Assembly (NCBI GenBank): GCA_947174235.1 | Contig: CAMWID010000007.1 | Location: forward strand, 1 to 64,000 | Direction: 5' to 3' | DNA: 64,000 bases | From: an uncultured Porphyromonadaceae bacterium | GTDB lineage: Bacteria > Bacteroidota > Bacteroidia > Bacteroidales > Muribaculaceae | Shown here: positions 11,449-63,781 of the stretch, piece after piece | Position numbering within the stretch: position 1 is the stretch's first letter | Layout of the letters: every line of letters begins with the position of its first letter | Translations under genes and position numbers: made by a program | The notes under the pieces: generated by a model | The model's database searches: none | Told to the model about the DNA's origin: nothing | Seen by the model: the letters and a program-made list of their open reading frames with translations, nothing else

Positions 11449-13764
11449 ATGGACAAAAATTTTTTCAGGGCCGCTACGCTTTTCAGTCTGGCCACCCTGA
11501 GTGTCACCTCCATGGCGGCTTCCGGCCATGAGAAGGTGAAGAGAGAGAACAACGACAGCATCGTGACGTTGAACGATTTTCAGGTTATAGGCAAAAAGAT
11601 TCAGCAAACCAAGATGCTGCCGTATGGTGTCGATGAGAAGTATCTTCCGGTAAATATGACGGAAGTGGATCGCAAGACGTTGGAGAACCGCGACATCAAC
11701 GACATCTCCAGCGCATCGCGGTTTCTTCCCTCGGTGAAGAACCGTACCACTTATGGCGGTTTTCAGGAGTTTTATATCCGAGGGTTCTCAAATCAGCTTG
11801 TAGCCACTGACGGTGTGGTCGACCAAAGGTCTTTCATCACATCGATGCCTATGCACGACCTCTCCAATGTGGAGCGTATAGAGCTCCTGCGCGGCCCGGC
11901 GTCGGCTCTCTACGGCCAGTCGGTGGTGGGAGGGGTAATCAATATCTCCCGTATGCAGCCTACCCGCGAAAATCATTTCCGGTCCAAACTGAGTCTCGGC
12001 TCATGGCATACATATTCCGGATTCGCCGGGATGTCGGGAAAACTTGTCGGACCTTTCAATTATTACGCCTCTGTGAGTCTTGGGAACAGCGATGGCTGGC
12101 GCGGAAATTTTGAGCGCCGCTTCACTGCATACGCCACGGTCTCCGGCTGGTTTTCCGACAAAGACTTTCTTCAGCTCGTCTATGATTTCTCAAGCGACCG
12201 CTACGGCACCGACACCGGCCTACCTCCTTTGATGTCAAACGACATATACAATGCCGACGGCACGCTGTATCTTCCCCGCTTCGCGAGTCTGCCGAATCTT
12301 CCCCGCACGGCACGCTATAACAATGAATCGGATTTTCTAAATAACCGCACTCAGGATGTGGAGATAAGATATGAACATCATTTCAGCGAGGCGTTCAAGC
12401 TGAAAGACGTGGCTATGTTCCGTTATGACAACATCAATTATATGTCGACAGAGACACTCTCCTATGTGACGAGCGAAGAGCCTGTATATCCCCATTATTA
12501 TGAGAGCAACGGTAAGCGCACCTATATCAACCTCGATGAGCTTACCAACAGTTCTCCGTTGCGTTTCAATCATATTGCCTACTCTTATCACAACCAGCTT
12601 GAACTTACCGGCAATTTCAGAGTCGGAAACGTGAAGAACAACTATGTGGCAGGCTATTCCATAAACTATCTGCACCGTCCTTCATATGGGCGAGGCACAT
12701 TCTTCGGCCCCGGCAAGAGCTACACGTTCCCGACCTACGACCCATATTCCGGAGGCGCCTATTGGGCTCATATGGGGCGTGTGAGCATAAGCGACAGGAT
12801 ATCGCAGGGCCTGTTCCTGTCGGATGTGGTGGATGTTTGCGAACAGTTCAAGTTTATGCTCGCCGGACGTTATGACTACTATAAATACCGTTCGGCAACT
12901 GTGGAACTGGAGAATGGTTCCTATGACTATGAGAAGCCGTCTTCCGATTCCTACAGCTCAATCGTGAACAATGCCCTCTCTTATCGTGTGGGAGCCGTAT
13001 ATGTGCCTGTGAAAGATCTCTCGCTTTATGTCTCAATGGGTTCGTTCTTCAAGCCAAACAATACGGTGTATACCGACAACTATATATATATTGACAAGAA
13101 CGGCAACCGTTATTTCCCGGAAGAGGGGGGAGAGGTATTCGCACCGGAGAAGGGATGGCAGTTTGAGATAGGTCTGAAATATGATTGGAACGGACTTTCC
13201 CTCAACGGTTCTTATTTTTACATCCATAAGGATAATGTGGTGACATCGTTGGGGACAGTGGAGGAGAATGGAGTCTCGAAACAAGTGCGCGGTCAGGTAG
13301 GGCGTATGCATTCTCAGGGCTTTGATATAGATTTGAACTACACGGTAGGTGATTTTGTGTTCGGAGGAGGATATGCATATACCGACCCGCGTGTGGGGAA
13401 GATTGCGGCTAACGACTATGTGACTGTCAATGCTGACAGAGGCAACCGTTACACATATATCCCGAAGAACCAGTTCTTTATCACCTCAGATTATGAAGCC
13501 TCGGCAGGTAAGCTGAAAGGGTTTGGGGCGGCGCTGTCGCTCACTTATCAGGACAAAGTATACACAAACCTCACGAACGGAATCACACTCGACTCTTATC
13601 TGCTCTGCGATCTCTCTCTGCGCTACCGCATGGGCAACGGTGTCGGGTTCATGGCCACAGTCAACAACCTTTTCAACCGACATTACAATGTGTCGAATCT
13701 CGGAAACCAGATGATTCCGGGACAGGACATAAACTATAAGTTCAGTGTGACCTACTCATTCTGA
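11449..13764 (+). CDS. TonB-dependent receptor, siderophore/corrinoid type
   Basis: A 771-residue outer-membrane receptor with signal peptide (cut near SMAAS), TonB-box-like start (VTLNDFQVIGKK), plug domain (about 70-200, with VERIELLRGPASALYGQ and GGVINI) and a 22-strand barrel ending in a C-terminal Phe. It lacks the N-terminal carboxypeptidase-like domain of SusC proteins and most resembles the FhuE/FpvA siderophore-receptor branch. The cobalamin riboswitch in its leader argues that its ligand is a corrinoid or something needed when B12 is short. A strong terminator separates it from the PepSY gene that follows. Confidence 0.88.
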   Translation: MDKNFFRAATLFSLATLSVTSMAASGHEKVKRENNDSIVTLNDFQVIGKKIQQTKMLPYGVDEKYLPVNMTEVDRKTLENRDINDISSASRFLPSVKNRTTYGGFQEFYIRGFSNQLVATDGVVDQRSFITSMPMHDLSNVERIELLRGPASALYGQSVVGGVINISRMQPTRENHFRSKLSLGSWHTYSGFAGMSGKLVGPFNYYASVSLGNSDGWRGNFERRFTAYATVSGWFSDKDFLQLVYDFSSDRYGTDTGLPPLMSNDIYNADGTLYLPRFASLPNLPRTARYNNESDFLNNRTQDVEIRYEHHFSEAFKLKDVAMFRYDNINYMSTETLSYVTSEEPVYPHYYESNGKRTYINLDELTNSSPLRFNHIAYSYHNQLELTGNFRVGNVKNNYVAGYSINYLHRPSYGRGTFFGPGKSYTFPTYDPYSGGAYWAHMGRVSISDRISQGLFLSDVVDVCEQFKFMLAGRYDYYKYRSATVELENGSYDYEKPSSDSYSSIVNNALSYRVGAVYVPVKDLSLYVSMGSFFKPNNTVYTDNYIYIDKNGNRYFPEEGGEVFAPEKGWQFEIGLKYDWNGLSLNGSYFYIHKDNVVTSLGTVEENGVSKQVRGQVGRMHSQGFDIDLNYTVGDFVFGGGYAYTDPRVGKIAANDYVTVNADRGNRYTYIPKNQFFITSDYEASAGKLKGFGAALSLTYQDKVYTNLTNGITLDSYLLCDLSLRYRMGNGVGFMATVNNLFNRHYNVSNLGNQMIPGQDINYKFSVTYSF

Positions 13765-13772
13765 CATTTTCA

Positions 13773-13810
13773 GGAGACGCCCCTCTGTTGATGTGGGCGT
13801 CTCCCTTTTT
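13773..13810 (+). terminator. Rho-independent terminator between receptor and PepSY gene
   Basis: Perfect 10-bp stem GGAGACGCCC (13773-13782) with GGGCGTCTCC (13795-13804), followed by CTTTTT. It lies 9 bp after the receptor stop and 30 bp before the next gene, so PepSY expression would depend on read-through or a weak promoter after it. Confidence 0.85.
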
Positions 13811-13839
13811 CTGTCAGTATTCTAATTTCAATACTTTGT

Positions 13840-15144
13840 ATGAAACATATTTTCAAAATCCTTTACAATTGTCATAAATGGTTCGGCATACCCTTGGCAC
13901 TGATGTTTATAATGTGGTATTGTTCGGGAATAGTCATGATGTATCACGGATTCCCTCGTCTTTCGGGGCAAGACCGTCCGGTGGAAAGAGTGGATCGCAC
14001 TGAACTCGACTCCCTATGGCGTATGGCACCTGATTCTGTAGGGATGAGCCGTCTGGCCTTCTCAGGCAAACGGCTTCAGCTTATGGTCGGGGGAGAGACT
14101 TTTGGAGGGTACAGGCCGGACTGTCATGCGCTTGAGGAGATTGCCGCGTCGTTCAACACAGTGATACAGAGGGTTGACACGCTGGACGACATCGACAAAT
14201 GGACACCATTCAATCATCTTGTCAGGCATTTGCCGTTCTATCGTATTGTAGGGGATGATGACTCATATATTTACGTCTCATCGGTCACGGGGGAGATTGT
14301 TCAGTACGCCACATTGTCAGCCAGACGCTGGGCATGGGTAGGGGCGTTGCCACATTATTTCTATGTCACCCCCATCCGACGTGATTCCGCCCTTTGGCGT
14401 AAGGTGGTGATATGGATGTCCGGGCTTTCTACTCTTTCAGTGCTTTTCGGAATGTCCATAGCGGTGAGGTTTCTGCTTCGGCGCAGGAGGCTGCGCCTGT
14501 TCATAAAACGGTCGTGGCAGTGGCATTATTCCTGGGGATTGTTTTTCGGAATATTCATGTTTGCATTTATTTTCAGCGGGATGATGTCGCTTGCCGATAT
14601 TCCGGACTGGCTCATGAAGTCGCGTCGGCTTGAAGGGCGTGGCGCAACGGTCGTTGCCAAGGGAGACGTTGACCTGTCGTCGTTTCCGGACAGGTTCGGG
14701 CAGGCGACGCTCAGTGTTGGTCCGCAGCTGCTGTGGACTGTCGACATAGGGGATGAAAAGATTGTGACAGGCGCGGAGTGTGGCGGTGCCCCGGACTTCA
14801 CCCCGTCATTCATGACCGGGATTATAGAACGGCAGACAGGAGAGAAGGTCACGGACGTGTCTCGCACTGATGGCGATATCTATTATAATGTGGATGATGT
14901 CCCGGGCTATAAAGCAAGGACTGAACATTTCACGGTCTATTGGAACGACCGGGGGTATTACCGGGTCCTGGACGCGAAAGGAAAAGCACGTAACATATGT
15001 TACCGTTTCCTCCACACGATGAGGATTCCTTGCCTTGTACGCGTGAAATGGCTTCACGAGCTATATATGTGGGTCATTCTGCTCGGAGGTATTGTGATTG
15101 TGGCAACAGGGACGGTGCTTTCTGTGCGTTCATTCAAGAGGTGA
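13840..15144 (+). CDS. PepSY-associated transmembrane protein
   Basis: A 434-residue inner-membrane protein of the PepSY-TM type. A first helix lies near residues 15-35 (IPLALMFIMWYCSGIVMM), a long periplasmic segment follows, then helices around 185-205, 230-255 and 400-425. PepSY-TM proteins often accompany siderophore receptors and are thought to act as inner-membrane reductases or export partners for metal chelates; none has a fully settled reaction. It follows the riboswitch-controlled receptor, so the two may work together on a corrinoid or metal complex. No other transporter part (BtuCD, BtuF) is present in the window. Confidence 0.85.
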   Translation: MKHIFKILYNCHKWFGIPLALMFIMWYCSGIVMMYHGFPRLSGQDRPVERVDRTELDSLWRMAPDSVGMSRLAFSGKRLQLMVGGETFGGYRPDCHALEEIAASFNTVIQRVDTLDDIDKWTPFNHLVRHLPFYRIVGDDDSYIYVSSVTGEIVQYATLSARRWAWVGALPHYFYVTPIRRDSALWRKVVIWMSGLSTLSVLFGMSIAVRFLLRRRRLRLFIKRSWQWHYSWGLFFGIFMFAFIFSGMMSLADIPDWLMKSRRLEGRGATVVAKGDVDLSSFPDRFGQATLSVGPQLLWTVDIGDEKIVTGAECGGAPDFTPSFMTGIIERQTGEKVTDVSRTDGDIYYNVDDVPGYKARTEHFTVYWNDRGYYRVLDAKGKARNICYRFLHTMRIPCLVRVKWLHELYMWVILLGGIVIVATGTVLSVRSFKR

Positions 15145-15437: not shown

Positions 15438-15486
15438 GAAATACCCTTTTGTGTTATGCCAGTTCGTTTCCGTAAGCCTATCTTTG
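15438..15486 (+). promoter_or_regulatory. Regulon box plus promoter of the ThiF gene
   Basis: Box GAAATACCCTTTTGTGT at 15438-15454, then 24 nt, then the -7 element TATCTTTG at 15479-15486. No TTTG -33 box is present at the right place, which suits an activator-dependent promoter. The same box at the same distance precedes three other plus-strand units. Confidence 0.8.
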
Positions 15487-15510
15487 CACCGTAATTAAAC
15501 AATATCCTAT

Positions 15511-16266
15511 ATGGACAGATATAACAGAAACAGAATTTATGTAAGCGAGGATGAGCAGGAGAAGGTTCGTGAGACCCGGATATTGCTCGGTGGGGCTGGC
15601 ATAGGCAGCATCATTGCCGAGTGCGCCCTGCGCTTCGGCTTCGAGAATATTGTGATTGTGGACGGTGACAAGGTGGAGTTATCCAATCTCAACCGTCAAA
15701 ACTATGTCAATAGCGACATCGGTAAATCCAAGGCGGAATGCCTCGCCAAGAGGCTGCTGAGGATAAACCCGAAGGCGAATATCCAATACCATGACACGTT
15801 CATCGACAAGGGCAATGTGAAGGAATTGCTCGAGGGGGTTGACATAGCCATCAATGCCCTCGACTTCAAGAGCGACATCCCTTTTGTATTCGATGACCTT
15901 TGTTCCAAAAGAAGGATTCCTGTCCTGCATCCTTATAATTTCGGATGGGGTGCATTTCTCACTATCATCAAGCCCGGAGGATACCAGCTCACAGAGGTGT
16001 CTCCGTCCTATAAGGGATTTGAGGTGAAAATGGCTGATTTCGTCGCCCGGTACTGCATGTTTTGGAACATGCCGAACAGGTGGCTCGACGATGTGATCGA
16101 GGCATACCGTAACGAGCCGGGGGAGCTGCCGCCGCCTCAGCTTTCCGTCGCTTCATGGATTGTTGCCGGAGAATGCGTAAACGCCATGTTCGACATCATA
16201 ACCGGGAAAGAGGTGAAGTATTTCCCAAAGTTCTATTTTTCCTCATTGCGCTGCGATCCGGCGTAA
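15511..16266 (+). CDS. ThiF/E1-like adenylyltransferase, candidate RiPP-modifying enzyme
   Basis: A 251-residue E1-type adenylation domain. The nucleotide loop GGAGIGS (27-33), Asp 51 in VDGDKVE, NLNRQ (59-63), Lys 72 and Asp 118 (NALDF) correspond to the ATP- and Mg-binding residues of ThiF, MoeB and MccB. The zinc-binding Cys pairs of MoeB/ThiF are absent, and there is no N-terminal peptide-recognition domain as in MccB. Such enzymes adenylate a peptide C-terminus or acidic side chain, in thiamin or molybdopterin synthesis or in peptide antibiotics. There is no ThiS- or MoaD-like partner nearby; instead a GG-leader peptide (18041) carries the same promoter box, which makes a role in peptide modification more likely. 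The LuxR gene converges on it, 13 bp away. Confidence 0.85.
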   Translation: MDRYNRNRIYVSEDEQEKVRETRILLGGAGIGSIIAECALRFGFENIVIVDGDKVELSNLNRQNYVNSDIGKSKAECLAKRLLRINPKANIQYHDTFIDKGNVKELLEGVDIAINALDFKSDIPFVFDDLCSKRRIPVLHPYNFGWGAFLTIIKPGGYQLTEVSPSYKGFEVKMADFVARYCMFWNMPNRWLDDVIEAYRNEPGELPPPQLSVASWIVAGECVNAMFDIITGKEVKYFPKFYFSSLRCDPA

Positions 16267-16279
16267 GAATCCAATCACC

Positions 16280-17044
16280 CTAAATCAACTGATGGTTCTG
16301 GGCGTATGCCACTGCCTCCGCTATATTCCTTACATTCAATTTCTGAAATATACTGCGCTTGCATGCCTTGACGGTATCGACCGACTTGCATATATTGTCG
16401 GCGATATCGTTCATCGTATATCCCTGTGTCGATAGTGAAAGTACCTCACGCTCGTTGTCCGTAAGCGTTATCTCCTTGCACTTCTCCCACTTGTGGTCAT
16501 ACAGGGAGTATTGGTAGAACATGCCGGAACCGGGCTTCTTCATGATGACATTCCCCGGCTCGTTGCCTGCCGCAAGGGAGATTGTGCATATTGCCAGCCA
16601 TATCCTGCCGTCCTTTGTCAGAATGAGCGGCGTCAGCTTATGGTTGACCAGGCGTTTTCGCTTTCCTCTCATTATGTGGAAGTCGTAGGATATTGTGTAG
16701 TCCTTCCTCTCGCCTACGGGAAGCGTATTGAATAGCTTGAATCCCATATTGTTTATCTCCACCAGCATCTTAAGGTCTTCAGGCGGTACATAGTCTATAT
16801 AGAACTTGTATCCGAAATCCTTTATCTTCCCTGCCTCGCCGCCGCAGAGGCGGGCTATGTTGTTGGAGACATACAGGAATCCCTTTTTGAAGTAGTCTAT
16901 GATATATACACACTGGTATGTGCTGCGCTCGAATGCCCGCGCAGCCTCTATTATGAGTCCGGTCTTCTCATAGTCGGACTCGTTGACACTCTCCACCGAG
17001 TTCTGTAGTGAAAAGAAGTCTCCTGTCTTTATATTGGAGTCCAT
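16280..17044 (-). CDS. PAS-LuxR transcriptional regulator of the peptide locus
   Basis: A 254-residue regulator. The N-terminal two thirds look like a PAS sensor domain (about 35-155, with YVSNNIARLCGG and YDFHIMRGKRKRLVNHKL). The last 65 residues are a LuxR-type helix-turn-helix (ITLTDNEREVLSLSTQGYT, then MNDIADNICKSVDTVKACK). No phosphoreceiver domain is present, so it may respond to a small ligand or redox state. Its own promoter carries the regulon box at 17109-17121, and the box is found at every other promoter of the locus, making it the obvious candidate to bind it and regulate itself. No membrane segment is seen. Confidence 0.88.
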   Translation of the reverse strand: MDSNIKTGDFFSLQNSVESVNESDYEKTGLIIEAARAFERSTYQCVYIIDYFKKGFLYVSNNIARLCGGEAGKIKDFGYKFYIDYVPPEDLKMLVEINNMGFKLFNTLPVGERKDYTISYDFHIMRGKRKRLVNHKLTPLILTKDGRIWLAICTISLAAGNEPGNVIMKKPGSGMFYQYSLYDHKWEKCKEITLTDNEREVLSLSTQGYTMNDIADNICKSVDTVKACKRSIFQKLNVRNIAEAVAYAQNHQLI

Positions 17045-17067
17045 AACGTTGTGGCTTTTTCTCGATG

Positions 17068-17121
17068 CAAAATTAATAAAATCCTGCCATACAAAGAATC
17101 AGCACACTACACAAAAGGGTA
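17068..17121 (-). promoter_or_regulatory. Regulon box plus promoter of the luxR-type gene
   Basis: On the minus strand the box TACCCTTTTGTGT occupies 17121-17109 and the -7 element TAATTTTG 17075-17068. The gap is 33 nt, 9 more than the 24 nt at the plus-strand promoters, close to one extra helical turn. The box faces the divergent box at 17143. Confidence 0.7.
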
Positions 17122-17142
17122 ATTTTTACAATCCGATTTCTT

Positions 17143-17191
17143 GAAATACCCTTTTGTGTCACAGTCAGGAGATAGTCTGCACGTAGTTTTG
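17143..17191 (+). promoter_or_regulatory. Regulon box plus promoter of GNAT copy 1
   Basis: GAAATACCCTTTTGTGT at 17143-17159, 24 nt, then TAGTTTTG at 17184-17191. This promoter lies just outside the duplicated 717-bp segment, so GNAT copy 2 does not have it. Confidence 0.8.
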
Positions 17192-17198
17192 CGGAAAA

Positions 17199-17915
17199 TT
17201 TCAAAACCGTCTCAACTATGGAAAAAGTGATTTGGTCATGCAGTGACTATTCTATCTTCAGAGTCGGTACTGACCGACTTCATGACGTCGCCCGATTCGT
17301 GGTGACACAGAACTATAACCATCATTCATCAGAACCGATCCCAGACACGGTACGGCAGGAGATTGAGGACATCTACCGGGAGGAGCTTTCCTACTCCGGA
17401 GACTCGGCTTGTTTCATCGTCCGGGATAAGGGAGGCAGAATGGTAGGCAGCATAAGAGTGTTCAGATGGGACAAACGGACACCCACACCTATGCATAAGA
17501 TTTTTCACATATCCCCATTGGATATGGTTAGGGACACCCCGGCAACCTCCTTCTGGCACATAGGACGATTTGCCATTGATTCCACCTCAGGCTTTTCCAC
17601 CGTCACAATGTTCAAGCAGCTCATGACTCTCGCCGTGGCTCCAATACTACGTGATGACGACAGCTATATGATAGCGGAGACCGACAGCCATCTTCTCAGG
17701 GTCATGAACGCCCTCGGCATCGAGACCCGGCAGATAGGGAATCCGCTCATCTACCTTGCATCCGAGACAATTCCGGTGTGTTCAAGTAAAAAAGGGCTAA
17801 CCAAGTTCTACCAAAGGTATTATCCCCTTCTTACAGCATCATAGCCCATATCGGACATACTACACAAAAGTGTATAAATATCCTTGAAATCAGAGAAATA
17901 CCCTTTTGTGTAATT
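17199..17915 (+). repeat. 717-bp direct repeat, left copy
   Basis: From TTTCAAAACC to ...GTGTAATT this segment recurs at 20540-21256 (offset 3341 bp). Reading both copies line by line I find one difference, G at 17895 against T at 21236. It holds the whole GNAT gene plus the boxes after it. Near-identity means a recent duplication or ongoing gene conversion. Confidence 0.95.
17218..17844 (+). CDS. LuxI-like GNAT acyltransferase, copy 1
   Basis: A 208-residue acyltransferase of the GNAT superfamily whose layout recalls acyl-homoserine-lactone synthases. It has a variable N-terminus, CFIVRDKGGRMVGSIRVFRW (65-84) as the central strands, WHIGRFAID (113-121), which corresponds to the LuxI-type W-E-x-S-R-F-A-V motif, and a C-terminal half with FKQLMTLAVAPILRDDD and MNALGIETRQIG. 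GNAT enzymes of this shape move an acyl group from acyl-CoA or acyl-ACP to an amine. In this locus the amine could be a small autoinducer or a residue of the GG-leader peptide; some known RiPPs are fatty-acylated by GNAT enzymes. The protein is identical to that encoded at 20559. Confidence 0.8.
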   Translation: MEKVIWSCSDYSIFRVGTDRLHDVARFVVTQNYNHHSSEPIPDTVRQEIEDIYREELSYSGDSACFIVRDKGGRMVGSIRVFRWDKRTPTPMHKIFHISPLDMVRDTPATSFWHIGRFAIDSTSGFSTVTMFKQLMTLAVAPILRDDDSYMIAETDSHLLRVMNALGIETRQIGNPLIYLASETIPVCSSKKGLTKFYQRYYPLLTAS

Positions 17916-17943
17916 GACAAAATCCAGCGTCATACTAATTTTG
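17862..17943 (+). promoter_or_regulatory. Paired boxes plus promoter of the precursor-peptide unit
   Basis: An inverted, weaker box lies at 17862-17874 (ACACAAAAGTGTA) and a full box GAAATACCCTTTTGTGT at 17895-17911. After 24 nt comes TAATTTTG at 17936-17943. Transcription should start near 17950, about 90 nt before the peptide ATG. Confidence 0.8.
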
Positions 17944-18040
17944 CATTGTCAATCAAAAGTATTGATAATAGTCGACTATCGCCATACAGCGTGCACGCTG
18001 TATGAAGTAACAAGAATCATTAACCAACAAAGAAAATGCA

Positions 18041-18187
18041 ATGAATGCAAACAACGAAATGGAGATAATGAGAATGGGTCACAATAGAGACCTCGACATT
18101 CTCAATCCCGCCGAGCAGGACGAAATACTCGGAGGAAAAACCGAAACACGCTGTCAAAAGGGTTACAGCAAATTCTGGGGATCATAA
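18041..18187 (+). CDS. Double-glycine-leader precursor peptide (putative RiPP)
   Basis: A 48-codon gene not long enough for usual ORF cut-offs. The leader ends in LNPAEQDEILGG (residues 21-32), which fits the classic GG-leader pattern with hydrophobic Leu at -12, Glu at -8, Ile at -4 and Gly-Gly at -2/-1. The predicted core is KTETRCQKGYSKFWGS (33-48): 16 residues with one Cys, three Lys, Tyr, Phe and Trp. A regulon box and -7 element lie upstream and an outer-membrane barrel gene follows by 60 bp. GG leaders are normally cut by C39-peptidase ABC exporters; none is in the window. The co-regulated ThiF and GNAT enzymes are candidates to modify the core. The product may be a bacteriocin, signal or metallophore; the sequence does not decide. 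Confidence 0.75.
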   Translation: MNANNEMEIMRMGHNRDLDILNPAEQDEILGGKTETRCQKGYSKFWGS

Positions 18188-18247
18188 TTCATAAAGACAC
18201 ATTAGTAGCCCTATTACCCCATCTCTATGAAGTAAACTACAAAAGAC

Positions 18248-20365
18248 ATGAACATGAAACAGCTTAAGTTTTTTTTATACGTTCTGACCCTTATCCATAC
18301 CTCGCATATGATGGGGCAACAGACTGTGGACACTGACAGCACCCACATCTTAAATGAAGTGGTTGTCAAGGGATATATACCTCAAGTAAAAACTAAAGGA
18401 ACTGTCACCACAGTGAAAATAAAAGGGACTGTCCTCTCTCAAATGGGAAATGCATCGACAATGCTCGAAAACACTCCGGGGCTTCACAGAGGGGCTTCAG
18501 GCATTGAAGTGAACGGTCTTGGCAAACCTATATTCATTCTTAATGACAGGGAAATTGACCCCAATAAGGTACTTGATCTCTTGCAGGCCAATACTATAAA
18601 AGAAATAAAGATCAACAAGGCACCTGATCTCTCCTATTCCACTGACGGCAGACCCATAGTCGAAATCATTCTTAACAGACCTGTGGATGATTTTATCCTA
18701 TTGTCGGTAGGAAATGACATGGCGGTAAAAAGAAAATTATCGGATGCCGGGACAGCAAATTTTGGCATCAATGTCAAAAAAATATCGACTACCATTGATT
18801 ATTTAGGGGGAATTTCACAGTTTCTAAATAAGGAAACATACTTTAGAAATGTATTCCATCCCCTCTATGTGTCCTCATTCGACCAGAAAAGAGAAGACGG
18901 GCATAAAGACCTGCTTCAGAAGGTACGATGGTCGCTTGACTACAATATTGACAAAAACCATAGACTTGGCTTAGAATATTACTACACGTTCAACAAAAAG
19001 TCCGCCCACGAGACTGGCTCAGATTTCTATGATTCAAATGAAAAAAGTGAGGAGTCCCTCTTCAATCGTCAGAAAGAGGGGATAGCCAATCTTCACAACA
19101 TCTCCCTGCAATACTACTATAAAAAAGAGAAGAGGACATTCCAGATTGTTCAGGATTTCGGCGCATCATCCTCCCGGAATAATGTCGAGACGGCAGACGG
19201 CACAGTCTCCACAGATAAGTACAGCCTTGCCCAAAATAAATATGACATATCAACAACCAACATTAAATTCGGCACGAGATTCCCTTATGATATTAATTTT
19301 ATGGCAGGCGTGAAGAACACTTTTATAAGCAATAGCAGTTCATCTTCGCTTAAATATTCCGGACACGACAGAAACGGCTACCGGCTTTCGACCAATATTA
19401 AGGAATACGAACCACAAGCTTTCCTGTCGTTATCCAGAAAGATAGGGAATGTCACTGTTAATGTAGGTGGAAGATACAGATACATGCGCCGCAAAGTGAG
19501 AAATGAAGAAGACAATATGTCGATGACGACAAAGACATATGACGTATCCTCTTTCTCTCCTCTTGTTTCTTTAACATACAGAAATTCGGCAGGTACATCC
19601 TTCTATCTCAGATATAACCGGACTATTGGTCATCCCAACTTCGGTTCTCTCAATTCAGGATACTCATACATGGATTCCCTGACTTACACGACCGGGAATC
19701 CGGACCTTAAGACATCCTTTTCCAATATAATATCGGCAGGCGTAAATTGGAGGGATTTCACCTTCTCGGCAAGATACTCCAATGTGTCAAATCCGATAGT
19801 CCGGGTTTCCGAACTTATGGAAGAAGGAAGCGACATAATCGTGGAAAGGGACATAAACCTGAGATATGACAACCAGCTGAGACTTGGATTGGAATATTCC
19901 AAAACCATATCCGAATTGAATATGTATGCGGAGGTGTCCGTGGTGTTTCCCCATGGGAAATATCTCTTCGCAGGAAAGGAATATACTGCTGACAGGATAT
20001 CAGTCAATGGAAATCTAAACATTAATTACCGTATTAATTCATTCCTTGGAGCTTATATTTCTTTCAATTATCAGGGATACAATCAAGACCTCACATTGAC
20101 ACAGAAAGCTGCCAACGACCTGTCGGCAGGAATCGTGGCAACTCTCCTGAGAAACCGACTGACCTTGAATCTGGCATTCACCGATATTTTGAACGGCACC
20201 CATTACAACAACATCACATATCGATACGGAAACGTGGCTAATGGGACTTACGGCACCAACGATGAACGTGGTGTCATGTTTAGATTAAACTACTCAATTT
20301 TCACCAAGAAAATAAGAACCCATACAAACAGAAACAATAACGAGGAGATACAGCGTCTCTATTGA
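18248..20365 (+). CDS. Outer-membrane beta-barrel receptor of the peptide locus
   Basis: A 705-residue outer-membrane protein: signal peptide (to about MMGQQ, residue 25), TonB-box-like ILNEVVVKGYIP (34-45), short plug-like domain (about 50-150), and a long beta-barrel of the outer membrane beta-barrel family 3 type. The C-terminus is not the usual aromatic residue before the stop; it ends in QRLY after a Lys/Asn-rich tail. It lacks the carboxypeptidase-regulatory domain of SusC proteins. It follows the precursor peptide by 60 bp and has no box of its own, so it is probably co-transcribed. Likely tasks are export to the medium, re-uptake, or sensing of the mature peptide. Such barrels accompany several Bacteroidetes peptide loci. 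Confidence 0.85.
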   Translation: MNMKQLKFFLYVLTLIHTSHMMGQQTVDTDSTHILNEVVVKGYIPQVKTKGTVTTVKIKGTVLSQMGNASTMLENTPGLHRGASGIEVNGLGKPIFILNDREIDPNKVLDLLQANTIKEIKINKAPDLSYSTDGRPIVEIILNRPVDDFILLSVGNDMAVKRKLSDAGTANFGINVKKISTTIDYLGGISQFLNKETYFRNVFHPLYVSSFDQKREDGHKDLLQKVRWSLDYNIDKNHRLGLEYYYTFNKKSAHETGSDFYDSNEKSEESLFNRQKEGIANLHNISLQYYYKKEKRTFQIVQDFGASSSRNNVETADGTVSTDKYSLAQNKYDISTTNIKFGTRFPYDINFMAGVKNTFISNSSSSSLKYSGHDRNGYRLSTNIKEYEPQAFLSLSRKIGNVTVNVGGRYRYMRRKVRNEEDNMSMTTKTYDVSSFSPLVSLTYRNSAGTSFYLRYNRTIGHPNFGSLNSGYSYMDSLTYTTGNPDLKTSFSNIISAGVNWRDFTFSARYSNVSNPIVRVSELMEEGSDIIVERDINLRYDNQLRLGLEYSKTISELNMYAEVSVVFPHGKYLFAGKEYTADRISVNGNLNINYRINSFLGAYISFNYQGYNQDLTLTQKAANDLSAGIVATLLRNRLTLNLAFTDILNGTHYNNITYRYGNVANGTYGTNDERGVMFRLNYSIFTKKIRTHTNRNNNEEIQRLY

Positions 20366-20440
20366 TCATAATCTATTATGCATGCATTCAGATTCTATCA
20401 TCAACACGATGCCATGCAATGTGGAGCTTAATGTCTATGC

Positions 20441-20518
20441 ATGGTAGGAAGCTACTTTGGCAAAAATTATTCCCTGGACATGGTATCTGACAGCGCATAT
20501 CCTGACCGGAGTTCATGA
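20441..20518 (+). CDS. Possible 25-residue peptide ORF
   Basis: Between the barrel gene and the second GNAT copy lies a short frame starting MVGSYFGKNYSL and ending DRSS. It has no clear promoter or leader. It may be a remnant of sequence disrupted by the duplication, or a second small peptide. Nothing else in the 20366-20539 gap is convincing. Confidence 0.2.
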   Translation: MVGSYFGKNYSLDMVSDSAYPDRSS

Positions 20519-20539
20519 CGAACTTTTTGCCACGCTTGT

Positions 20540-21256
20540 TTTCAAAACCGTCTCAACTATGGAAAAAGTGATTTGGTCATGCAGTGACTATTCTATCTTC
20601 AGAGTCGGTACTGACCGACTTCATGACGTCGCCCGATTCGTGGTGACACAGAACTATAACCATCATTCATCAGAACCGATCCCAGACACGGTACGGCAGG
20701 AGATTGAGGACATCTACCGGGAGGAGCTTTCCTACTCCGGAGACTCGGCTTGTTTCATCGTCCGGGATAAGGGAGGCAGAATGGTAGGCAGCATAAGAGT
20801 GTTCAGATGGGACAAACGGACACCCACACCTATGCATAAGATTTTTCACATATCCCCATTGGATATGGTTAGGGACACCCCGGCAACCTCCTTCTGGCAC
20901 ATAGGACGATTTGCCATTGATTCCACCTCAGGCTTTTCCACCGTCACAATGTTCAAGCAGCTCATGACTCTCGCCGTGGCTCCAATACTACGTGATGACG
21001 ACAGCTATATGATAGCGGAGACCGACAGCCATCTTCTCAGGGTCATGAACGCCCTCGGCATCGAGACCCGGCAGATAGGGAATCCGCTCATCTACCTTGC
21101 ATCCGAGACAATTCCGGTGTGTTCAAGTAAAAAAGGGCTAACCAAGTTCTACCAAAGGTATTATCCCCTTCTTACAGCATCATAGCCCATATCGGACATA
21201 CTACACAAAAGTGTATAAATATCCTTGAAATCAGATAAATACCCTTTTGTGTAATT
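20540..21256 (+). repeat. 717-bp direct repeat, right copy
   Basis: Second copy of 17199-17915 with one base changed (T at 21236). The left breakpoint lies 19 bp before the GNAT start codon, so the GNAT gene was copied without its own promoter but with the promoter boxes downstream of it. Confidence 0.95.
20559..21185 (+). CDS. LuxI-like GNAT acyltransferase, copy 2
   Basis: Encodes the same 208 residues as the gene at 17218. An upstream in-frame TTG at 20457 would add 34 unrelated residues, but the duplicated sequence begins at 20540, so the ATG at 20559 is the natural start. It lacks the box promoter that drives copy 1 and is probably transcribed from the peptide promoter through the barrel gene. 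The benefit may be dosage, or it may be a by-product of duplicating the promoter that now drives the lipoprotein/TonB operon. Confidence 0.8.
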   Translation: MEKVIWSCSDYSIFRVGTDRLHDVARFVVTQNYNHHSSEPIPDTVRQEIEDIYREELSYSGDSACFIVRDKGGRMVGSIRVFRWDKRTPTPMHKIFHISPLDMVRDTPATSFWHIGRFAIDSTSGFSTVTMFKQLMTLAVAPILRDDDSYMIAETDSHLLRVMNALGIETRQIGNPLIYLASETIPVCSSKKGLTKFYQRYYPLLTAS

Positions 21257-21284
21257 AATAACTTAAAGCACAACATTAACTTTG
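21203..21284 (+). promoter_or_regulatory. Paired boxes plus promoter of the lipoprotein/TonB operon
   Basis: Inverted box at 21203-21215 and main box TAAATACCCTTTTGTGT at 21236-21252 were delivered by the duplication. The -7 element TAACTTTG at 21277-21284 lies in unique DNA yet is again exactly 24 nt from the box. Confidence 0.8.
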
Positions 21285-21340
21285 CATCATCAATAACAAA
21301 AAACAGATGAAGTCGACAACATCAAAAAAACAACAAAGAA

Positions 21341-22129
21341 ATGAACAAAACGATAAAAAATTTAGCACTACTATGTGCTGTCCTAGGGCTTGCGTCCTGT
21401 AATAATGAGGACACTCCCGTTACACAACCAAATGCTAACCTCAATCCTCAGGAATTCCTAAACATCTCATATAATGGAAAGGAGTATTCGAATATTCCTA
21501 CAACTTATGATGAAAATGGTGAGTTCATTTTCCTTGATAAGGATTTTTCAAAAATCTATGAAGGGGAATTAAAGGATTTGAGCACACTCTCTATTCACCT
21601 AAATGATGAATCCTCAATCGAAATGTTTAAGACTCTTGATGACAATCTTGAAAAACACGGGGTTGAAATCTCTTCAGTTCCAATGGGGAATGATGTTCTT
21701 ACACGAACAGGAGTATCGTCTGAGGAAAACTTTCTTGGCACGGTTGATTTATGGGATGACAAGAAATTTAAGGATACTCATTGGCAATTTGGCATCATGA
21801 CTGCCACAAATCCTAAGTGGGTTGAAAATCTTGGGTCTCCCTATAAATTTAACGACAAATGTTCGTCATTAATTCTCACCAACAATCTTCCTAACGATTC
21901 TTCAAAAGAACTCAACATGGGTTCATACACACTTAAATATTCAGAAGCGACTCTTGTTTTCATAGGTTATGATGATAGAGGCTATTCTGATCGCACATTT
22001 ACTGCTTTGGCAAAACCAACGGAAAAAAAGGAATTTCGCGAACTCAAAAACTTTAATGATAAAATGAGTTCATTAAAACTCTTCTTCGCAAGAACTGGAG
22101 TATACACCACAGAAGGTGCATCCAAATAA
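21341..22129 (+). CDS. Putative lipoprotein, unknown function
   Basis: A 262-residue protein with a lipoprotein signal (GLASC, Cys 20) and no family I recognise. The mature part is acidic and mixed alpha/beta. A Trp-containing segment near 130-155 (VDLWDDKKFKDTHWQFGIMT) is its most distinctive stretch. It is the first gene after a regulon box and begins a run of two lipoproteins, a TonB receptor and a DUF4249 protein. A surface partner of the receptor, or an immunity lipoprotein for the locus peptide, would both fit. Confidence 0.7.
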   Translation: MNKTIKNLALLCAVLGLASCNNEDTPVTQPNANLNPQEFLNISYNGKEYSNIPTTYDENGEFIFLDKDFSKIYEGELKDLSTLSIHLNDESSIEMFKTLDDNLEKHGVEISSVPMGNDVLTRTGVSSEENFLGTVDLWDDKKFKDTHWQFGIMTATNPKWVENLGSPYKFNDKCSSLILTNNLPNDSSKELNMGSYTLKYSEATLVFIGYDDRGYSDRTFTALAKPTEKKEFRELKNFNDKMSSLKLFFARTGVYTTEGASK

Positions 22130-22263
22130 TCAATTACAGAGTAAGAATATTGCTAAACATATGTCTTGATAAATCACATTATACTTTTATCCACAAACAA
22201 TCACTGTATTTTTGAAAAAACAAGATATATGTGATTCAACAATATTCTTACTCTACAAACACT

Positions 22264-22698
22264 ATGCGTATGAAATATCTATTCTATTTTTTATTCGTTT
22301 CAATCTTAATATCGCTATCTTCATGTAACAAAGAAGATGAACCTTCTCCTGACAATGAGGGTAGCCCACGTGACTGGACTTATCTCAATGATCAAATAAA
22401 GTTCTATATTGATAATGTGGAACAAGTTTCTATTTCCGAGATTACAGTTAGATCCTTACAACTTAAAGCATCCAATGACGACTTCTCGTTTCCATGGTAT
22501 TCCACTACACTTAAAGTTAAAGGGCTTCTCCCAAAAGACAAAATTTTAGAAATAGAGGTTCTTGCTGATGTTGAAAGATTTGAAGGAACAACATCTATTA
22601 ACGGTATAGACTATGATGTTACAGGCGAATATACGGGGAGTCCGTTTGAACATTATAAAGATATGGGCATAATTGTCAATCTAAATAAAAAACTGTAA
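22264..22698 (+). CDS. Putative small lipoprotein, unknown function
   Basis: A protein of about 144 residues. The start is taken at 22264 (or 22270) rather than the upstream ATG at 22231, because the lipoprotein signal MRMKYLFYFLFVSILISLSS followed by Cys then stands at the N-terminus. The mature domain is short and probably all-beta. No family recognised. It abuts the TonB receptor gene, whose ATG follows the stop after one base, so the two are translationally close. Confidence 0.65.
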   Translation: MRMKYLFYFLFVSILISLSSCNKEDEPSPDNEGSPRDWTYLNDQIKFYIDNVEQVSISEITVRSLQLKASNDDFSFPWYSTTLKVKGLLPKDKILEIEVLADVERFEGTTSINGIDYDVTGEYTGSPFEHYKDMGIIVNLNKKL

Positions 22699-22699
22699 A

Positions 22700-24958
22700 A
22701 TGATACGTTGTTTTGCAACCTGTGTCTCAGCCATGACAATTTCTTGTGTTTTCGCACAGGCACCTTCTGATACTTTACCGAATCAGACTCTTGATGAAGT
22801 GATAGTGTCTGCCACAGGAGCAAACCGTAATCTGAAGGCAGCCGAAATGGGCAGACACATATTAGGAAAAGAAGCCATTTTGAGACTTCCTGTCCTTTTC
22901 GGCGAACCGGATGTGATAAAAACACTTCAGACACTTCCAGGAGTCTCACAAGGAGTTGAGGGCTTTACCGGACTATATGTACATGGGGGAGACAATGACC
23001 AAAACCTTTTCCTCTATAACGGATTACCACTCTATCATGTCAGTCACCTTGGAGGGATATTCTCTTCATTCAATGTCTCGACAATTCGCAATGTGGATTT
23101 TTTCAAATCTTCATTTCCGGCAAGATTTGGAGGTCGCATCTCCAGTATTACTAATATAAATATGACAGCTCCTGCTTTTGAAAGATACACTGGAAAATTC
23201 ACAATAGGTCTTCTTGCTGCCAACGGTTATATTTCAGGTCCTATAATAAGAGACAGACTGGCGTTTAGTGCAGCTATCAGACGTTCATGGATTGATATAG
23301 TCGGACGTCCGGCTCTGGCTGTTGTCAATGCAATACAGAAGAAAAACGGGAAAAAGACGATAGCAAACTACAATTTTACCGACTTCAACGCAAGAATTGA
23401 TTGGAAACTCGGTTCCGGCAAGATTTATGCCATAGGCTATTACGGACATGATTATCTGAAGATCGGAGACAGGAATTTCGAATCGACCAACGAAATTATT
23501 AAAGTGAATCCCGGCGGCTCCATATCTTCCGGCTCAGATGGAAACCAGACTTGCTTTTTCGATGAAAATACCAACCGGCTCTCATGGGGCAACTGGGGAA
23601 TATCGCTTAATGCCGATTACAGAGTTGGACAGGGTTATCTGAATACGGTAGCTTATTATTCAAGTTATTCCTCTCATTACCGTCAGATGAATGAACATCA
23701 GTCAGACCTTGACGATGACTCAACATACGGATATACGCTCAACAGTACAAAAAATGCCATTGCTGATATAGGCATAAATACTCAGTATATGCAGCAGTTC
23801 GGTGAAACATACCTCTTGAAGGCTGGAATAGGTTATGTTAGCCATGATTATCATCCGGAAGGATTGGTCAATGAATATGCAGATGCTTCAGAAAAATGGA
23901 GTGACAATAACGATAATCCATCGGTAAAATCAAATGAGATATTCGCATATCTCGATAATCTTTTCAATTTCGGAGAGGTTGCCTCTCTTGATGTAGGATT
24001 GAGATTTGTCGACCATTTTATTCAAGGCAAATCATTTCCGCGGCTTGAGCCGAGAGTCTCATTCAGAATAAATCTTACGCGTGATTATAGCTTAAAGGCA
24101 TCATACGCCCGTATCAACCAGTTTGTGCAGCAGGTGTCGAGCAACTATATCAACCTTCCCACCGACCTGTGGCAACCTGTCGGCAAGGGCGACAAGCCGC
24201 TGGGAAGCGATCAATTCTCGCTGGGCCTTTACGGTAACCTTCCAATAGATATGTATTTCTCTGTGGAGGGATGGTACAAAGGTATGCGTAATCTTGTGGA
24301 ATACCGGGAAGGAATATCATCACTAAATCCCGGTCTTGAATGGGATGAAAAAACTACAACAGGCAAGGGGTGGGCTTACGGCGTCGATCTCAGTGTCAGC
24401 AAGGAAATCGGAAGAGTGACCGGCTCTGTGAGCTATGGGCTCATGTGGAACTGGCGAAAATTTCCCGAACTTAATAACGGAGGAAAATTCCCTGCCAAGT
24501 TTGACAACCGCAATAAAATCAACATCAATGCCACATACAGGCTCAACGACCACATCGAGTTCAACGCCGGCTGGACTTATATGACAGGGAACCGTCTCAC
24601 ACTTTCTCTATATAATTATGATGAGCCGGGCAATAATTTTCCGGATGCCCCCTCTACCGGTATCGCAAATTCCGGATTCGACTGGGAACAGGCCTCAGGT
24701 CTTGACTACTACCACAGCCGCAACAATGTCCGACTTCCCGCATATCATCGTCTTGACATCGGCATGAGCATTTTCAAAAAACTGAAAAATGGAGCAAGAA
24801 CAATCTGGAACTTCAGTATATACAACGCCTATTGCCGCATGAATACCATGACCATAAAGAAGGATAATTTTGTTGGTGGCGGCGACCTTAACCGTTCGTT
24901 CCAGAAGTTCAGCCTCATTCCTGTCGTACCATCAGTTTCATGGACTTATGAATTTTAA
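22700..24958 (+). CDS. TonB-dependent receptor paired with DUF4249
   Basis: A 752-residue outer-membrane receptor: signal peptide (to about VFAQA), TonB-box-like QTLDEVIVSATG (29-40), plug domain (GEPDVIKTLQTLPGVSQGVE, VHGGDNDQNLFLYNGLPLYH) and a barrel ending WTYEF. This branch, lacking the N-terminal carboxypeptidase-like domain, is typically paired with a DUF4249 lipoprotein, as here (24963). It is part of the operon begun at 21341 under the regulon box, so the ligand may be the locus peptide or a related compound. Codon use is closer to the glycan genes than to the AT-rich lipoproteins before it. Confidence 0.88.
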   Translation: MIRCFATCVSAMTISCVFAQAPSDTLPNQTLDEVIVSATGANRNLKAAEMGRHILGKEAILRLPVLFGEPDVIKTLQTLPGVSQGVEGFTGLYVHGGDNDQNLFLYNGLPLYHVSHLGGIFSSFNVSTIRNVDFFKSSFPARFGGRISSITNINMTAPAFERYTGKFTIGLLAANGYISGPIIRDRLAFSAAIRRSWIDIVGRPALAVVNAIQKKNGKKTIANYNFTDFNARIDWKLGSGKIYAIGYYGHDYLKIGDRNFESTNEIIKVNPGGSISSGSDGNQTCFFDENTNRLSWGNWGISLNADYRVGQGYLNTVAYYSSYSSHYRQMNEHQSDLDDDSTYGYTLNSTKNAIADIGINTQYMQQFGETYLLKAGIGYVSHDYHPEGLVNEYADASEKWSDNNDNPSVKSNEIFAYLDNLFNFGEVASLDVGLRFVDHFIQGKSFPRLEPRVSFRINLTRDYSLKASYARINQFVQQVSSNYINLPTDLWQPVGKGDKPLGSDQFSLGLYGNLPIDMYFSVEGWYKGMRNLVEYREGISSLNPGLEWDEKTTTGKGWAYGVDLSVSKEIGRVTGSVSYGLMWNWRKFPELNNGGKFPAKFDNRNKININATYRLNDHIEFNAGWTYMTGNRLTLSLYNYDEPGNNFPDAPSTGIANSGFDWEQASGLDYYHSRNNVRLPAYHRLDIGMSIFKKLKNGARTIWNFSIYNAYCRMNTMTIKKDNFVGGGDLNRSFQKFSLIPVVPSVSWTYEF

Positions 24959-24962
24959 TGAT

Positions 24963-25949
24963 ATGAGAAATCTGTTTATAAAGACTTTTGCCGGATTGTT
25001 GTCAACGATGATGCTGTCAGGTTGTTATCAGGACATCGATCTTGACAAATACAAGGGACAGGAAGGTGAACACCTGCTGACAATCAACTCTATAATCAAT
25101 CCGGATTCCACAATAACGGTAGCAGCCTCAAAAACTTACTTTTTCTCCGATATCCATAACGAGCGCGACTATGTGCGCGATCTTGATATCCGGATAAAGG
25201 TAAATAATCGAGACTGCGGCAGGATGATGTTCGATCCGGAAACCAAGCTATACATTTCGGATATAAAGCCCACTGAGAAAGATACAGTGGAGTTATCAAC
25301 GGTATATCTGGATAAAATTGTAAACTGTAAGGACGAAGTCCCGTCCAAAGTCAGGATTGAATCCGTATCAGCCGAACGTCAAGGCCCTGTGTCAATCTAT
25401 TCGGACAATGATTATATAATCACTTACAGAATTAGATTTTCGGATCCTGCGGACGAAAAGAATTATTATTTCCTGCATTATGACATGGAATGGCCGTCCA
25501 ACAGTGTCAGGATGGGCGAACGAGACTATACCTTTGAATTTGTATTCCAACAGCTCGCCAATATAATAAACTCCAATATTCCCGGGTGGGAGCCGTATTC
25601 CCCGTATGGACTTCCCTTCTCCGATGATGGAATTGAAGGAAGAACCCATACGCTTGTCGTCAAGGAGATTCTACAGGGCGGACACGGCTATAACCTTACT
25701 CGTTACAACGAAATGAAACGAAAGTTCAAGCTTTTCTCAATCTCCAAAGACTATTATGAATATCTCCTTAGTGTGCTTTATAATGATACCGATTCAGAAG
25801 GTCTGCACGGAGGAATGATTGACTTGGGAATTGCAGAACCGATGAAATACTTTTCCAATATTATGGGTGGAATCGGTATATTCGCGGCATATTCTCTCGA
25901 TGAAACCGATCTGGATGTAATTCAGATTTGTGGGAAATTTCCAAAATAA
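24963..25949 (+). CDS. DUF4249-family lipoprotein
   Basis: A 328-residue lipoprotein (MRNLFIKTFAGLLSTMMLSG then Cys). The start at 24963 is chosen over earlier in-frame codons inside the preceding gene because it gives a proper lipoprotein signal; it lies 5 bp after the receptor stop. DUF4249 proteins occur almost only in Bacteroidetes beside a TonB receptor and are thought to cap or assist it at the surface. The Ig-like early part (NSIINPDSTITVAASKTYFF) is typical. Confidence 0.85.
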   Translation: MRNLFIKTFAGLLSTMMLSGCYQDIDLDKYKGQEGEHLLTINSIINPDSTITVAASKTYFFSDIHNERDYVRDLDIRIKVNNRDCGRMMFDPETKLYISDIKPTEKDTVELSTVYLDKIVNCKDEVPSKVRIESVSAERQGPVSIYSDNDYIITYRIRFSDPADEKNYYFLHYDMEWPSNSVRMGERDYTFEFVFQQLANIINSNIPGWEPYSPYGLPFSDDGIEGRTHTLVVKEILQGGHGYNLTRYNEMKRKFKLFSISKDYYEYLLSVLYNDTDSEGLHGGMIDLGIAEPMKYFSNIMGGIGIFAAYSLDETDLDVIQICGKFPK

Positions 25950-30655: not shown

Positions 30656-31525
30656 ATGAAACAAATATTATTCATATTGATATTCTCTTGGTTCGGGATA
30701 ACTGTTTCAGCACAATCTATTAATTTTGGGAAAGGCAACTCTTCTCCTAAAACTGACAGCATCGCCAAAATAATAATGGAACCCACAGAATATGTAGTTA
30801 CTTATGCATACTCTTTTGCACCTGATCCAGAGTTTCCCGAGGATACAAAAGATGGCTTGACAATCTTACAAATAGGCAAGCGTTATAATCGCTTTTCTGA
30901 TTATAATGAGCTTCGTTTTGACTCTATCTGTGATGAAGTTGCACACAATAGAATAGGTGTTGCTGATGCGACTCCAATTATGCTTGGTGCGTTAAAAAGA
31001 AGCTGCTTTACCGAAGGTATTCTCATAGACCGAGAAAACAAAAAGGAAATAATACAAAGAACGGCCGGTTTACGAACCAAGAAATACCAATACGAAGAAT
31101 CTTGCCCTGATTTGAAATGGGAGATAGTTGAAGGAGATACGATAATCGCCGGTTATCATTGCAATAAGGCAAAAACCAGATTATTCGGACGCGATTATGT
31201 AGCTTGGTACACACCCGAAATAAACATGCCATATGGTCCATATAAATTCAATGGGCTTCCCGGGCTTATCTGTCGTATAACAGATACTAATCACAACTTT
31301 GATTTTACGCTAAACGGCTTTGAAAAAGCCAAAACCAATCGCCCAATATATCTTTGGAATAAGAAAGACATCGTAAAAACAGACCGTAAAACGGTTCGTA
31401 AAATCTACAAAAACTTTTGTGCGGATCCTGTGAGTGCATTGCTCAGTAAAGGAAATGTACAGATTCCAAAAGAAACTAGGGCCAGTGTAGAACCAAAACC
31501 TTATAATCCAATAGAGCTTGAATAA
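30656..31525 (+). CDS. GLPGLI-family secreted protein
   Basis: A 289-residue protein with a signal peptide (ending VSAQS) and the family signature PYGPYKFNGLPGLI at about 197-210, preceded by DYVAWYTPEINM. GLPGLI proteins are a large Bacteroidetes family, almost always beside a TonB-type outer-membrane protein. Their biochemical role is not established; the conserved domain follows a variable N-terminal part. Its stop overlaps the start of the barrel gene, so the two are translationally coupled. Confidence 0.9.
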   Translation: MKQILFILIFSWFGITVSAQSINFGKGNSSPKTDSIAKIIMEPTEYVVTYAYSFAPDPEFPEDTKDGLTILQIGKRYNRFSDYNELRFDSICDEVAHNRIGVADATPIMLGALKRSCFTEGILIDRENKKEIIQRTAGLRTKKYQYEESCPDLKWEIVEGDTIIAGYHCNKAKTRLFGRDYVAWYTPEINMPYGPYKFNGLPGLICRITDTNHNFDFTLNGFEKAKTNRPIYLWNKKDIVKTDRKTVRKIYKNFCADPVSALLSKGNVQIPKETRASVEPKPYNPIELE

Positions 31526-56573: not shown

Positions 56574-57176
56574 TCAGACTAATCTGGTTTCACTCAAAAA
56601 TTCACTATAGTGTATTTCTTTCTGGATAGACAGGTAGCTGCCAAACAAAAACGACCATGATTCATCTGACAAATAGCTTGTTGCCGCCACTGAGGAATCC
56701 TCTCCGAAATGCTTTGTCAGATATCCGCCGGACCTGTATGCATCGGTACCATTCTTATCAAGTGCTATATAATATTCATGTTGAACATTGTCATAATAGA
56801 CATTTGCCCCATGATATTTAAACATGGCGTCCCTCATTGCCTCAAAAGGATCACTATACAGTCCGAACGGGTCGGTGAAATTTATCGGATTTGCATTACA
56901 ATAGGCGTAGGGAGAGATTGAAGGTATCGCTTCCGCAAGAGGGTCGATGGTCGTGAACCGCTGGAAGGAGGCGACGTAGTTCCTCGCCTCGAAGTCGTAT
57001 TTGTTCAACGCTCCGCCCGCCAGCCTCTCCTTGGCGCTGAAAAGATAGCGGTTGCCCGCCGCCCCGCTGCCGTAGACCGGCTCGAGCCACGGCTCTCCCG
57101 AAGCGTAGTAGTCCGTCCGCTGCACCAGCTTACCGGTCTTGTCATATACCCCGATGTTGTTGCCTTTAAAATTCAT
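56574..57176 (-). CDS. Orphan Rhs C-terminal tip
   Basis: A 200-residue fragment that begins inside an Rhs repeat region (GVYDKTGKLVQRTDYYASGE) and holds the conserved Rhs core end: RYLFSAKERL, NKYDFEARNYVASFQRFTTI and DPLAEAIPSISPYAYCNANP then INFTDPFG. After DPFG come about 95 residues unlike the core, the usual place for a toxin domain; its activity is not recognised. It has no signal peptide and lies downstream of the ankyrin gene, as displaced tips do in polymorphic-toxin loci. It may be silent until recombined onto the large Rhs gene. Confidence 0.8.
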   Translation of the reverse strand: MNFKGNNIGVYDKTGKLVQRTDYYASGEPWLEPVYGSGAAGNRYLFSAKERLAGGALNKYDFEARNYVASFQRFTTIDPLAEAIPSISPYAYCNANPINFTDPFGLYSDPFEAMRDAMFKYHGANVYYDNVQHEYYIALDKNGTDAYRSGGYLTKHFGEDSSVAATSYLSDESWSFLFGSYLSIQKEIHYSEFLSETRLV

Positions 57177-57209
57177 AAACCATTGGTTATCAGTTTAACT
57201 TATTACGCA

Positions 57210-57317
57210 TTATGCATTGATTAAACCCGCTGAATTGAAGAAACCTCCCGGGAATCTTGACATAACGACCGCATTGCCGCTCACCACATGACCGTTGCCC
57301 GTATAGCTCTTTGACAT
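57210..57317 (-). pseudogene. Short Rhs-like fragment
   Basis: A 35-codon frame starting MSKSYTGNGHVVSGNAVVMS, ending in a stop 34 bp before the orphan tip. It repeats the SYTGN motif that ends the conserved part of the large Rhs protein (SGSYTGNRLTSVT). I read it as the joint between an old Rhs core and the orphan tip, broken by a stop. Confidence 0.5.
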
Positions 57318-57328
57318 ACCTATACTTT

Positions 57329-58216: not shown

Positions 58217-58288
58217 ATCTATATGTATTTTTCGAATTATCCGGTATGCGGTGTAATGACTTGCACCGCAACCGGGATGAATAACTGT

Positions 58289-63677: not shown

Positions 63678-63781
63678 GATGCAGGTATGATGTTCGGTAA
63701 GTGATGTGTTTCTGTGATGTAAGTGATGTCTGTGTGTCAACCGGATTCGGCGGGGATCCCCTGAGTGTCAGGGGTGGCGGG

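What the first reader, a model, noticed from the sequence alone, without database searches (positions are those of the whole stretch)
15438..25949. Candidate undescribed ribosomal-peptide system: GG-leader peptide, ThiF/E1 enzyme, LuxI-like GNAT and PAS-LuxR regulator
Seen: a 48-codon gene at 18041-18187 whose leader matches the double-glycine pattern (L-12, E-8, I-4, GG) and whose 16-residue core is KTETRCQKGYSKFWGS. Its promoter box is shared with a ThiF-like adenylyltransferase, a LuxI-like GNAT, a PAS-LuxR regulator, an outer-membrane barrel and a TonB/DUF4249 operon. Known: ThiF-like enzymes modify peptides in microcin C and pantocin-type pathways; GNAT enzymes acylate some RiPPs; GG leaders are removed by C39 exporters. 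Inference: the locus makes an adenylated or cyclised and perhaps acylated peptide, exported through the barrel and sensed or taken back. I know of no named system with this set of parts.
Basis: partly seen in the sequence, partly recalled or inferred. Interest (0 to 1): 0.92.

Follow-up and report, generated by a model that had tools for sequence, protein, structure and literature searches.

The report
Quorum-signal locus with wrecked peptide cassette
A gut bacterium's genes for making and sensing a small chemical signal, of a kind first described in 2025, sit in front of the broken remains of a small-peptide export cluster and a nutrient-receptor operon that the signal probably switches on.

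The parts
15439..15454 (+). Operator box (exact) before ThiF; left arm degenerate
   Evidence: best inverted pair only 8 of 12
15511..16266 (+). ThiF/E1-like protein, AclA relative (by homology the ATP-dependent cyclising enzyme of ACL synthesis)
16280..17044 (-). LuxR-type regulator, likely ACL receptor (AclR; name recalled)
   Evidence: GerE 8.1e-12; 22-sequence family; PDB 3clo_A over profile positions 96-251, E 7.6e-16
17109..17159 (.). Operator between LuxR and GNAT: ACACAAAAGGGT-N27-ACCCTTTTGTGT, perfect 12-bp inverted repeat
17199..17915 (+). Duplicated block, copy 1 (GNAT plus following operator); copy 2 at 20540-21256; one mismatch (17895)
17218..17844 (+). FeeM/LuxI-like GNAT, copy 1 (N-acyltransferase, by inference of L-lysine)
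17862..17911 (.). Operator before the peptide: exact right box at 17896, left arm at 17862-17877 with 3 mismatches
18041..18187 (+). 48-codon double-glycine-leader peptide, orphan
   Evidence: no relative at E below 0.02 in 110 other same-genus genomes
18248..20365 (+). 705-aa outer-membrane barrel (OMP_b-brl_3)
   Evidence: PF14905 3.1e-35; distant relatives (20-33% identity), some beside C39 exporters in L115, L026, L030
20393..20512 (+). Broken N-terminal end of a C39 peptidase exporter, one in-frame stop
   Evidence: PF03412, 21.9 bits (22.3 with neighbours; cut-off 22), E 3.0e-4; translation
20559..21185 (+). GNAT copy 2, identical in 627 of 627 bases to copy 1
21203..21252 (.). Operator before the lipoprotein-TonB-DUF4249 operon: exact right box at 21237, left arm at 21203-21218 with 3 mismatches
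21341..22129 (+). Putative lipoprotein A (262 aa), no Pfam family over its cut-off
   Evidence: relatives in L025 and L028, weak one in L029
22264..22698 (+). Putative lipoprotein B (144 aa)
22700..24958 (+). TonB-dependent receptor
   Evidence: PF07715 1e-6
24963..25949 (+). DUF4249 protein
   Evidence: PF14054 8e-44

Best explanation
This is an N-acyl-cyclolysine (ACL) cell-signalling locus of a Muribaculaceae gut bacterium together with its local regulon. The GNAT acylates lysine and the AclA-type ThiF protein activates the carboxylate with ATP so that the lysine closes on itself; this chemistry is inferred from AclA homology and recall of the 2025 paper. The LuxR-type protein senses the product and binds the shared operator (inferred from position and conservation), switching on its own locus, a peptide cassette and a TonB/DUF4249 operon. 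Shown by sequence: family membership of ThiF, recurrence of the triad, the operator, and the restriction of its exact copies to this locus. The 48-codon peptide is the surviving head of a peptide-barrel-C39 exporter cassette whose exporter gene is now broken and truncated by a second GNAT copy. The peptide could at most be processed by one of the three full-length C39 exporters elsewhere in the genome.
Confidence: 0.92

Rival explanations
1. One reading: ThiF and GNAT are tailoring enzymes that adenylate or cyclise and acylate the 48-codon peptide (microcin C- or pantocin-like), which the barrel exports.
For: ThiF is in the same superfamily as MccB and PaaA (E 3.5e-11 and 7.2e-11); the peptide shares the operator.
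Against: AclA is a far closer relative. The enzymes are present where the peptide is absent and beside peptides of unrelated classes.
Confidence: 0.03
2. The triad is an ACL system, but the peptide ORF is a chance reading frame and the cassette is only a barrel gene plus debris.
For: No relative of the peptide at E below 0.02 in 110 other same-genus genomes; short ORF; a stricter leader pattern misses it; adjacent exporter broken.
Against: Leader at the expected place, directly behind the operator as GG peptides are behind GNAT in L026, L034 and L115; 0 of 200 shuffles give the pattern; C39 stump beside it.
Confidence: 0.2
3. The cassette arrangement (two identical GNATs, truncated exporter) is an assembly error.
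For: The genome is in 138 contigs; identical 700-bp repeats are a common cause of misjoins; contigs of G016, G009, G076 and G470 end at or within 177 bases of GNAT.
Against: The two copies differ at 17895/21236 and have distinct flanks. The 160 bases after copy 2 match those after the single GNAT of G110 at 99.4%. The exporter stump is inside one contig.
Confidence: 0.08

Closest known systems
N-acyl-cyclolysine (ACL) signalling system of Bacteroidota (Linares-Otoya et al., Nature 2025;646:423-432; citation and one-sentence summary seen in review PMC13419125, passages only)
   Same: AclA relative at E 1.6e-109, LuxR-type regulator and acyltransferase in one block, with neighbouring operons for secreted products (last point recalled)
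   Different: Muribaculaceae member with GNAT in two identical copies, a decayed double-glycine peptide cassette and a TonB/DUF4249 operon as the intact cargo
LuxI/LuxR acyl-homoserine-lactone quorum sensing
   Same: Acyltransferase of a fold shared with LasI beside a LuxR-type regulator; inverted-repeat operator
   Different: A separate ThiF-type enzyme; Autoind_synth Pfam only 15.8 bits, in one relative
FeeM N-acyl amino acid synthases
   Different: Below the family cut-off; companion ThiF
Microcin C (MccB) and pantocin (PaaA) peptide adenylation
   Same: E1-like superfamily
   Different: AclA is much closer; enzymes persist without any such peptide
Double-glycine peptide / radical-SAM or Lan enzymes / C39 exporter clusters of Bacteroidota
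   Same: Leader, barrel and exporter stump in the window; fuller clusters in L026, L034, L108, L106, L115, L116
   Different: In the window no maturase and no intact exporter remain

Membership tests
ACL signalling system | AclA-type ThiF enzyme | tested here: met
ACL signalling system | Companion N-acyltransferase of the GNAT/autoinducer-synthase type (recalled) | tested here: met
   Within 5 kb of ThiF in 22 of 38 loci; fold like FeeM and LasI, on a low-confidence model and with other GNATs scoring as high
ACL signalling system | LuxR-type receptor-regulator beside it (recalled) | tested here: met
   GerE domain; within 5 kb in 27 of 38 loci
ACL signalling system | Controls co-localised operons (recalled) | tested here: inconclusive
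   Exact operator boxes only in this locus; regulation not measured
ACL signalling system | Produces N-acyl-cyclolysine | not testable with these tools
   needs mass spectrometry
LuxI/LuxR AHL quorum sensing | LuxI-family synthase over the Pfam cut-off | tested here: not met
   No Autoind_synth hit for the window GNAT; 15.8 bits in L115, cut-off 24
Microcin C-like peptide adenylation | ThiF enzyme dedicated to the neighbouring peptide | tested here: not met
   ThiF present without the peptide; closer to AclA
C39-exported double-glycine peptide cluster | GG leader peptide | tested here: met
   (a stricter pattern misses it)
C39-exported double-glycine peptide cluster | Intact C39 exporter in the cluster | tested here: not met
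   only a stump with a stop; full-length ones on contigs C13, C17, C102

The most novel reading that the evidence does not exclude
ACL loci act as docking sites: secreted-peptide cassettes move between Bacteroidota with a GNAT-operator head, recombine into the resident locus through that head, and thereby come under the resident signal at once, after which the extra synthase copy decays. The window shows an identical pair around a stump, and G031 and G091 show decayed heads that look foreign.
Probability: 0.35. Interest if true: 0.6.

Novelty: new member of a known kind. Interest (0 to 1): 0.4.

Why it matters
It places a 2025 signalling system in a Muribaculaceae gut lineage with its operator and local regulon written out. 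It explains why unrelated double-glycine peptide clusters share one regulatory head, and it offers a testable route by which such clusters are exchanged and lost.

Tried and rejected
Peptide tailoring by ThiF and GNAT: rejected (see rivals). Peptide relatives: at E up to 1, 7 of 110 other same-genus genomes and one further place in the own genome gave weak matches (E 0.02 to 0.92). I looked only at the best, G098 at E 0.0213; its locus L127 reads by eye as an argininosuccinate-synthase/argC stretch, so chance. A box with one mismatch at C17:8133 lies inside a 979-aa coding frame of another peptide cluster (L058): treated as chance. At up to 2 mismatches the genome search gives 16 matches against 14 for the reversed control, so only the exact and one-mismatch boxes carry weight.

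The GNAT profile against PDB sequences gave nothing useful. Viral contigs gave no GNAT, one ThiF relative and one LuxR relative. Literature: the ten searches listed one review that names ACLs and no other paper that I recognised as being on the ACL genes.

Limits of the counts: the 38 ThiF loci (34 genomes) come from the family, order and phylum surveys (15 of 297, 6 of 393, 12 of 395 genomes at E <= 1e-60, overlapping sets) plus four same-genus genomes found by GNAT (G016, G043, G104, G110, in which 11 of 200 genomes matched). They are not a random sample, and related genomes count apart. In one search, L027 and L098 hold almost no downstream sequence; the leader pattern was written after I had seen some peptides, but the same pattern was used upstream; one GG peptide of L108 (59 aa, seen) missed it.

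Full report
What is there. The window is contig C7 of a 3.44-Mb genome in 138 contigs. Of the six loci with record titles found by the GNAT, four are titled Muribaculaceae, one Porphyromonadaceae and one (a weak match) Belliella. The finding's genes are all present. The box AAATACCCTTTTGTGT occurs four times exactly and seven times at up to three mismatches, against 0.60 expected. Between LuxR and GNAT it forms a perfect 12-bp inverted repeat, ACACAAAAGGGT-N27-ACCCTTTTGTGT; the same form occurs in G110, G077 and G1126 (L103), and G091 (L029) and G1051 (L106) have ACACAAAAGTGT with ACACTTTTGTGT. In the other window promoters the left arm is weaker: 3 mismatches to the box before the peptide and before the lipoprotein-TonB-DUF4249 operon, degenerate before ThiF. 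In the whole genome, all four exact copies lie in this locus. The right arm is followed by a TAnnTTTG-like sequence, the Bacteroidota -7 element (recalled).

What the module controls. Downstream of GNAT in 19 triad loci there are 13 double-glycine-leader ORFs in 136 kb (8 of 19 loci), against none in 129 kb upstream on both strands. Full C39 exporters lie within 15 kb of 11 of 38 ThiF loci where 0.41 would be expected. Cargo classes differ: radical-SAM enzymes with C39 exporters (L026, L108, L106, L034), LanC and LanB with four double-glycine peptides, three of them CANASC-type (L116; its C39 gene lies just beyond the stretch fetched), or peptides with a C39 exporter and an enzyme without a Pfam family (L115). 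The other 11 of 19 triads showed no such ORF: L025, L029, L035, L097, L099, L103, L104, L114, L119, and L027 and L098, which hold almost no downstream sequence. So the triad is not tied to any one peptide, which argues against a tailoring role.

The window's cassette is a stump. After the barrel gene, 20393-20512 encodes the N-terminal end of a C39 peptidase (PF03412, 21.9 bits, 22.3 with neighbours, cut-off 22; positions 4-43 of 133) with an in-frame stop. It is cut off by a second GNAT, identical in 627 of 627 bases to the first, within a 717-base duplicate that has one mismatch. In G110, whose GNAT is the closest found (99% identity; 16 of 627 bases differ), one GNAT is followed directly by the lipoprotein-TonB-DUF4249 operon. 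The 160 bases after that GNAT equal those after copy 2 at 99.4% and those after copy 1 at 72%; the 173 bases before it match those before copy 1 at 73% and those before copy 2 at 34%, all without gaps. Recombination between the two GNATs would give G110's arrangement; insertion in the other direction is equally possible. The 48-codon peptide has no relative at E below 0.02 in 110 other same-genus genomes. Three full-length C39 exporters remain elsewhere in the genome, so processing of the peptide is not excluded.

A wider pattern. In G031 and G091, a broken GNAT stands before a barrel-plus-GG-peptide cassette; in G091 that lies about 45 kb from the triad on the same contig. Most of these remnant pieces are closer to GNATs of other genomes than to the intact GNAT of their own genome. 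The G031 end piece is 90% identical to G110 and 80% to its own over 71 residues. One G091 piece is 61% identical to G110 and 37% to its own over 46 residues, another 48% to G031 and 29% to its own over 65. The G031 middle piece is undecided: by protein its own genome scores highest (72%), by DNA G110 does (86% over 167 bases against 75% over 237). The third G091 piece is short, with DNA matches only to G110, G000 and G077. Contigs of G016, G009, G076 and G470 end at or within 177 bases of GNAT, as repeated sequence would cause. This suggests, from few cases, that cassettes arrive with a GNAT-operator head. Whether the 2025 paper already reports this I could not check.

Verdict. The claim of an undescribed peptide-modifying system is not supported.

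Noticed in passing
window 56574-63740: A large RHS-repeat-like protein gene (1616 aa, 58890-63740 -) with a lipase-like ORF overlapping its end (58289-58954) and a further RHS-type tail ORF (56574-57176): looks like a polymorphic RHS protein with a displaced alternative tail. Read by eye from the translations only.
   Followed up: no
window 11449-15144: A TonB-receptor-like gene followed by a PepSY-like membrane protein (both by eye) directly upstream of the locus; no box at up to 3 mismatches before it.
   Followed up: no
window 30656-34091: GLPGLI-like protein and an 857-aa barrel whose distant relatives (34% and 26% identity) stand together inside a triad-headed peptide cassette in L034.
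   Followed up: no
L058 (G000 contig C17) 3303-11317: A double-glycine peptide, radical-SAM, barrel and C39 exporter cluster in the same genome without a triad beside it.
   Followed up: partly
L029 about 15836-16266: A short ABC-transporter ATPase remnant (by eye) downstream of the DUF4249 gene in G091, perhaps another decayed exporter.
   Followed up: no
L137 (NZ_CP081938.1): Riemerella anatipestifer record with ThiF (56.5% identity) and a helix-turn-helix regulator in the same tail-to-tail order; no GNAT in the listed genes, but that gene table is incomplete.
   Followed up: no
L123 (G752): An AclA-type ThiF gene at the end of what reads by eye like a non-ribosomal peptide synthetase region, without LuxR or GNAT in the 10.8 kb held.
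   Followed up: no
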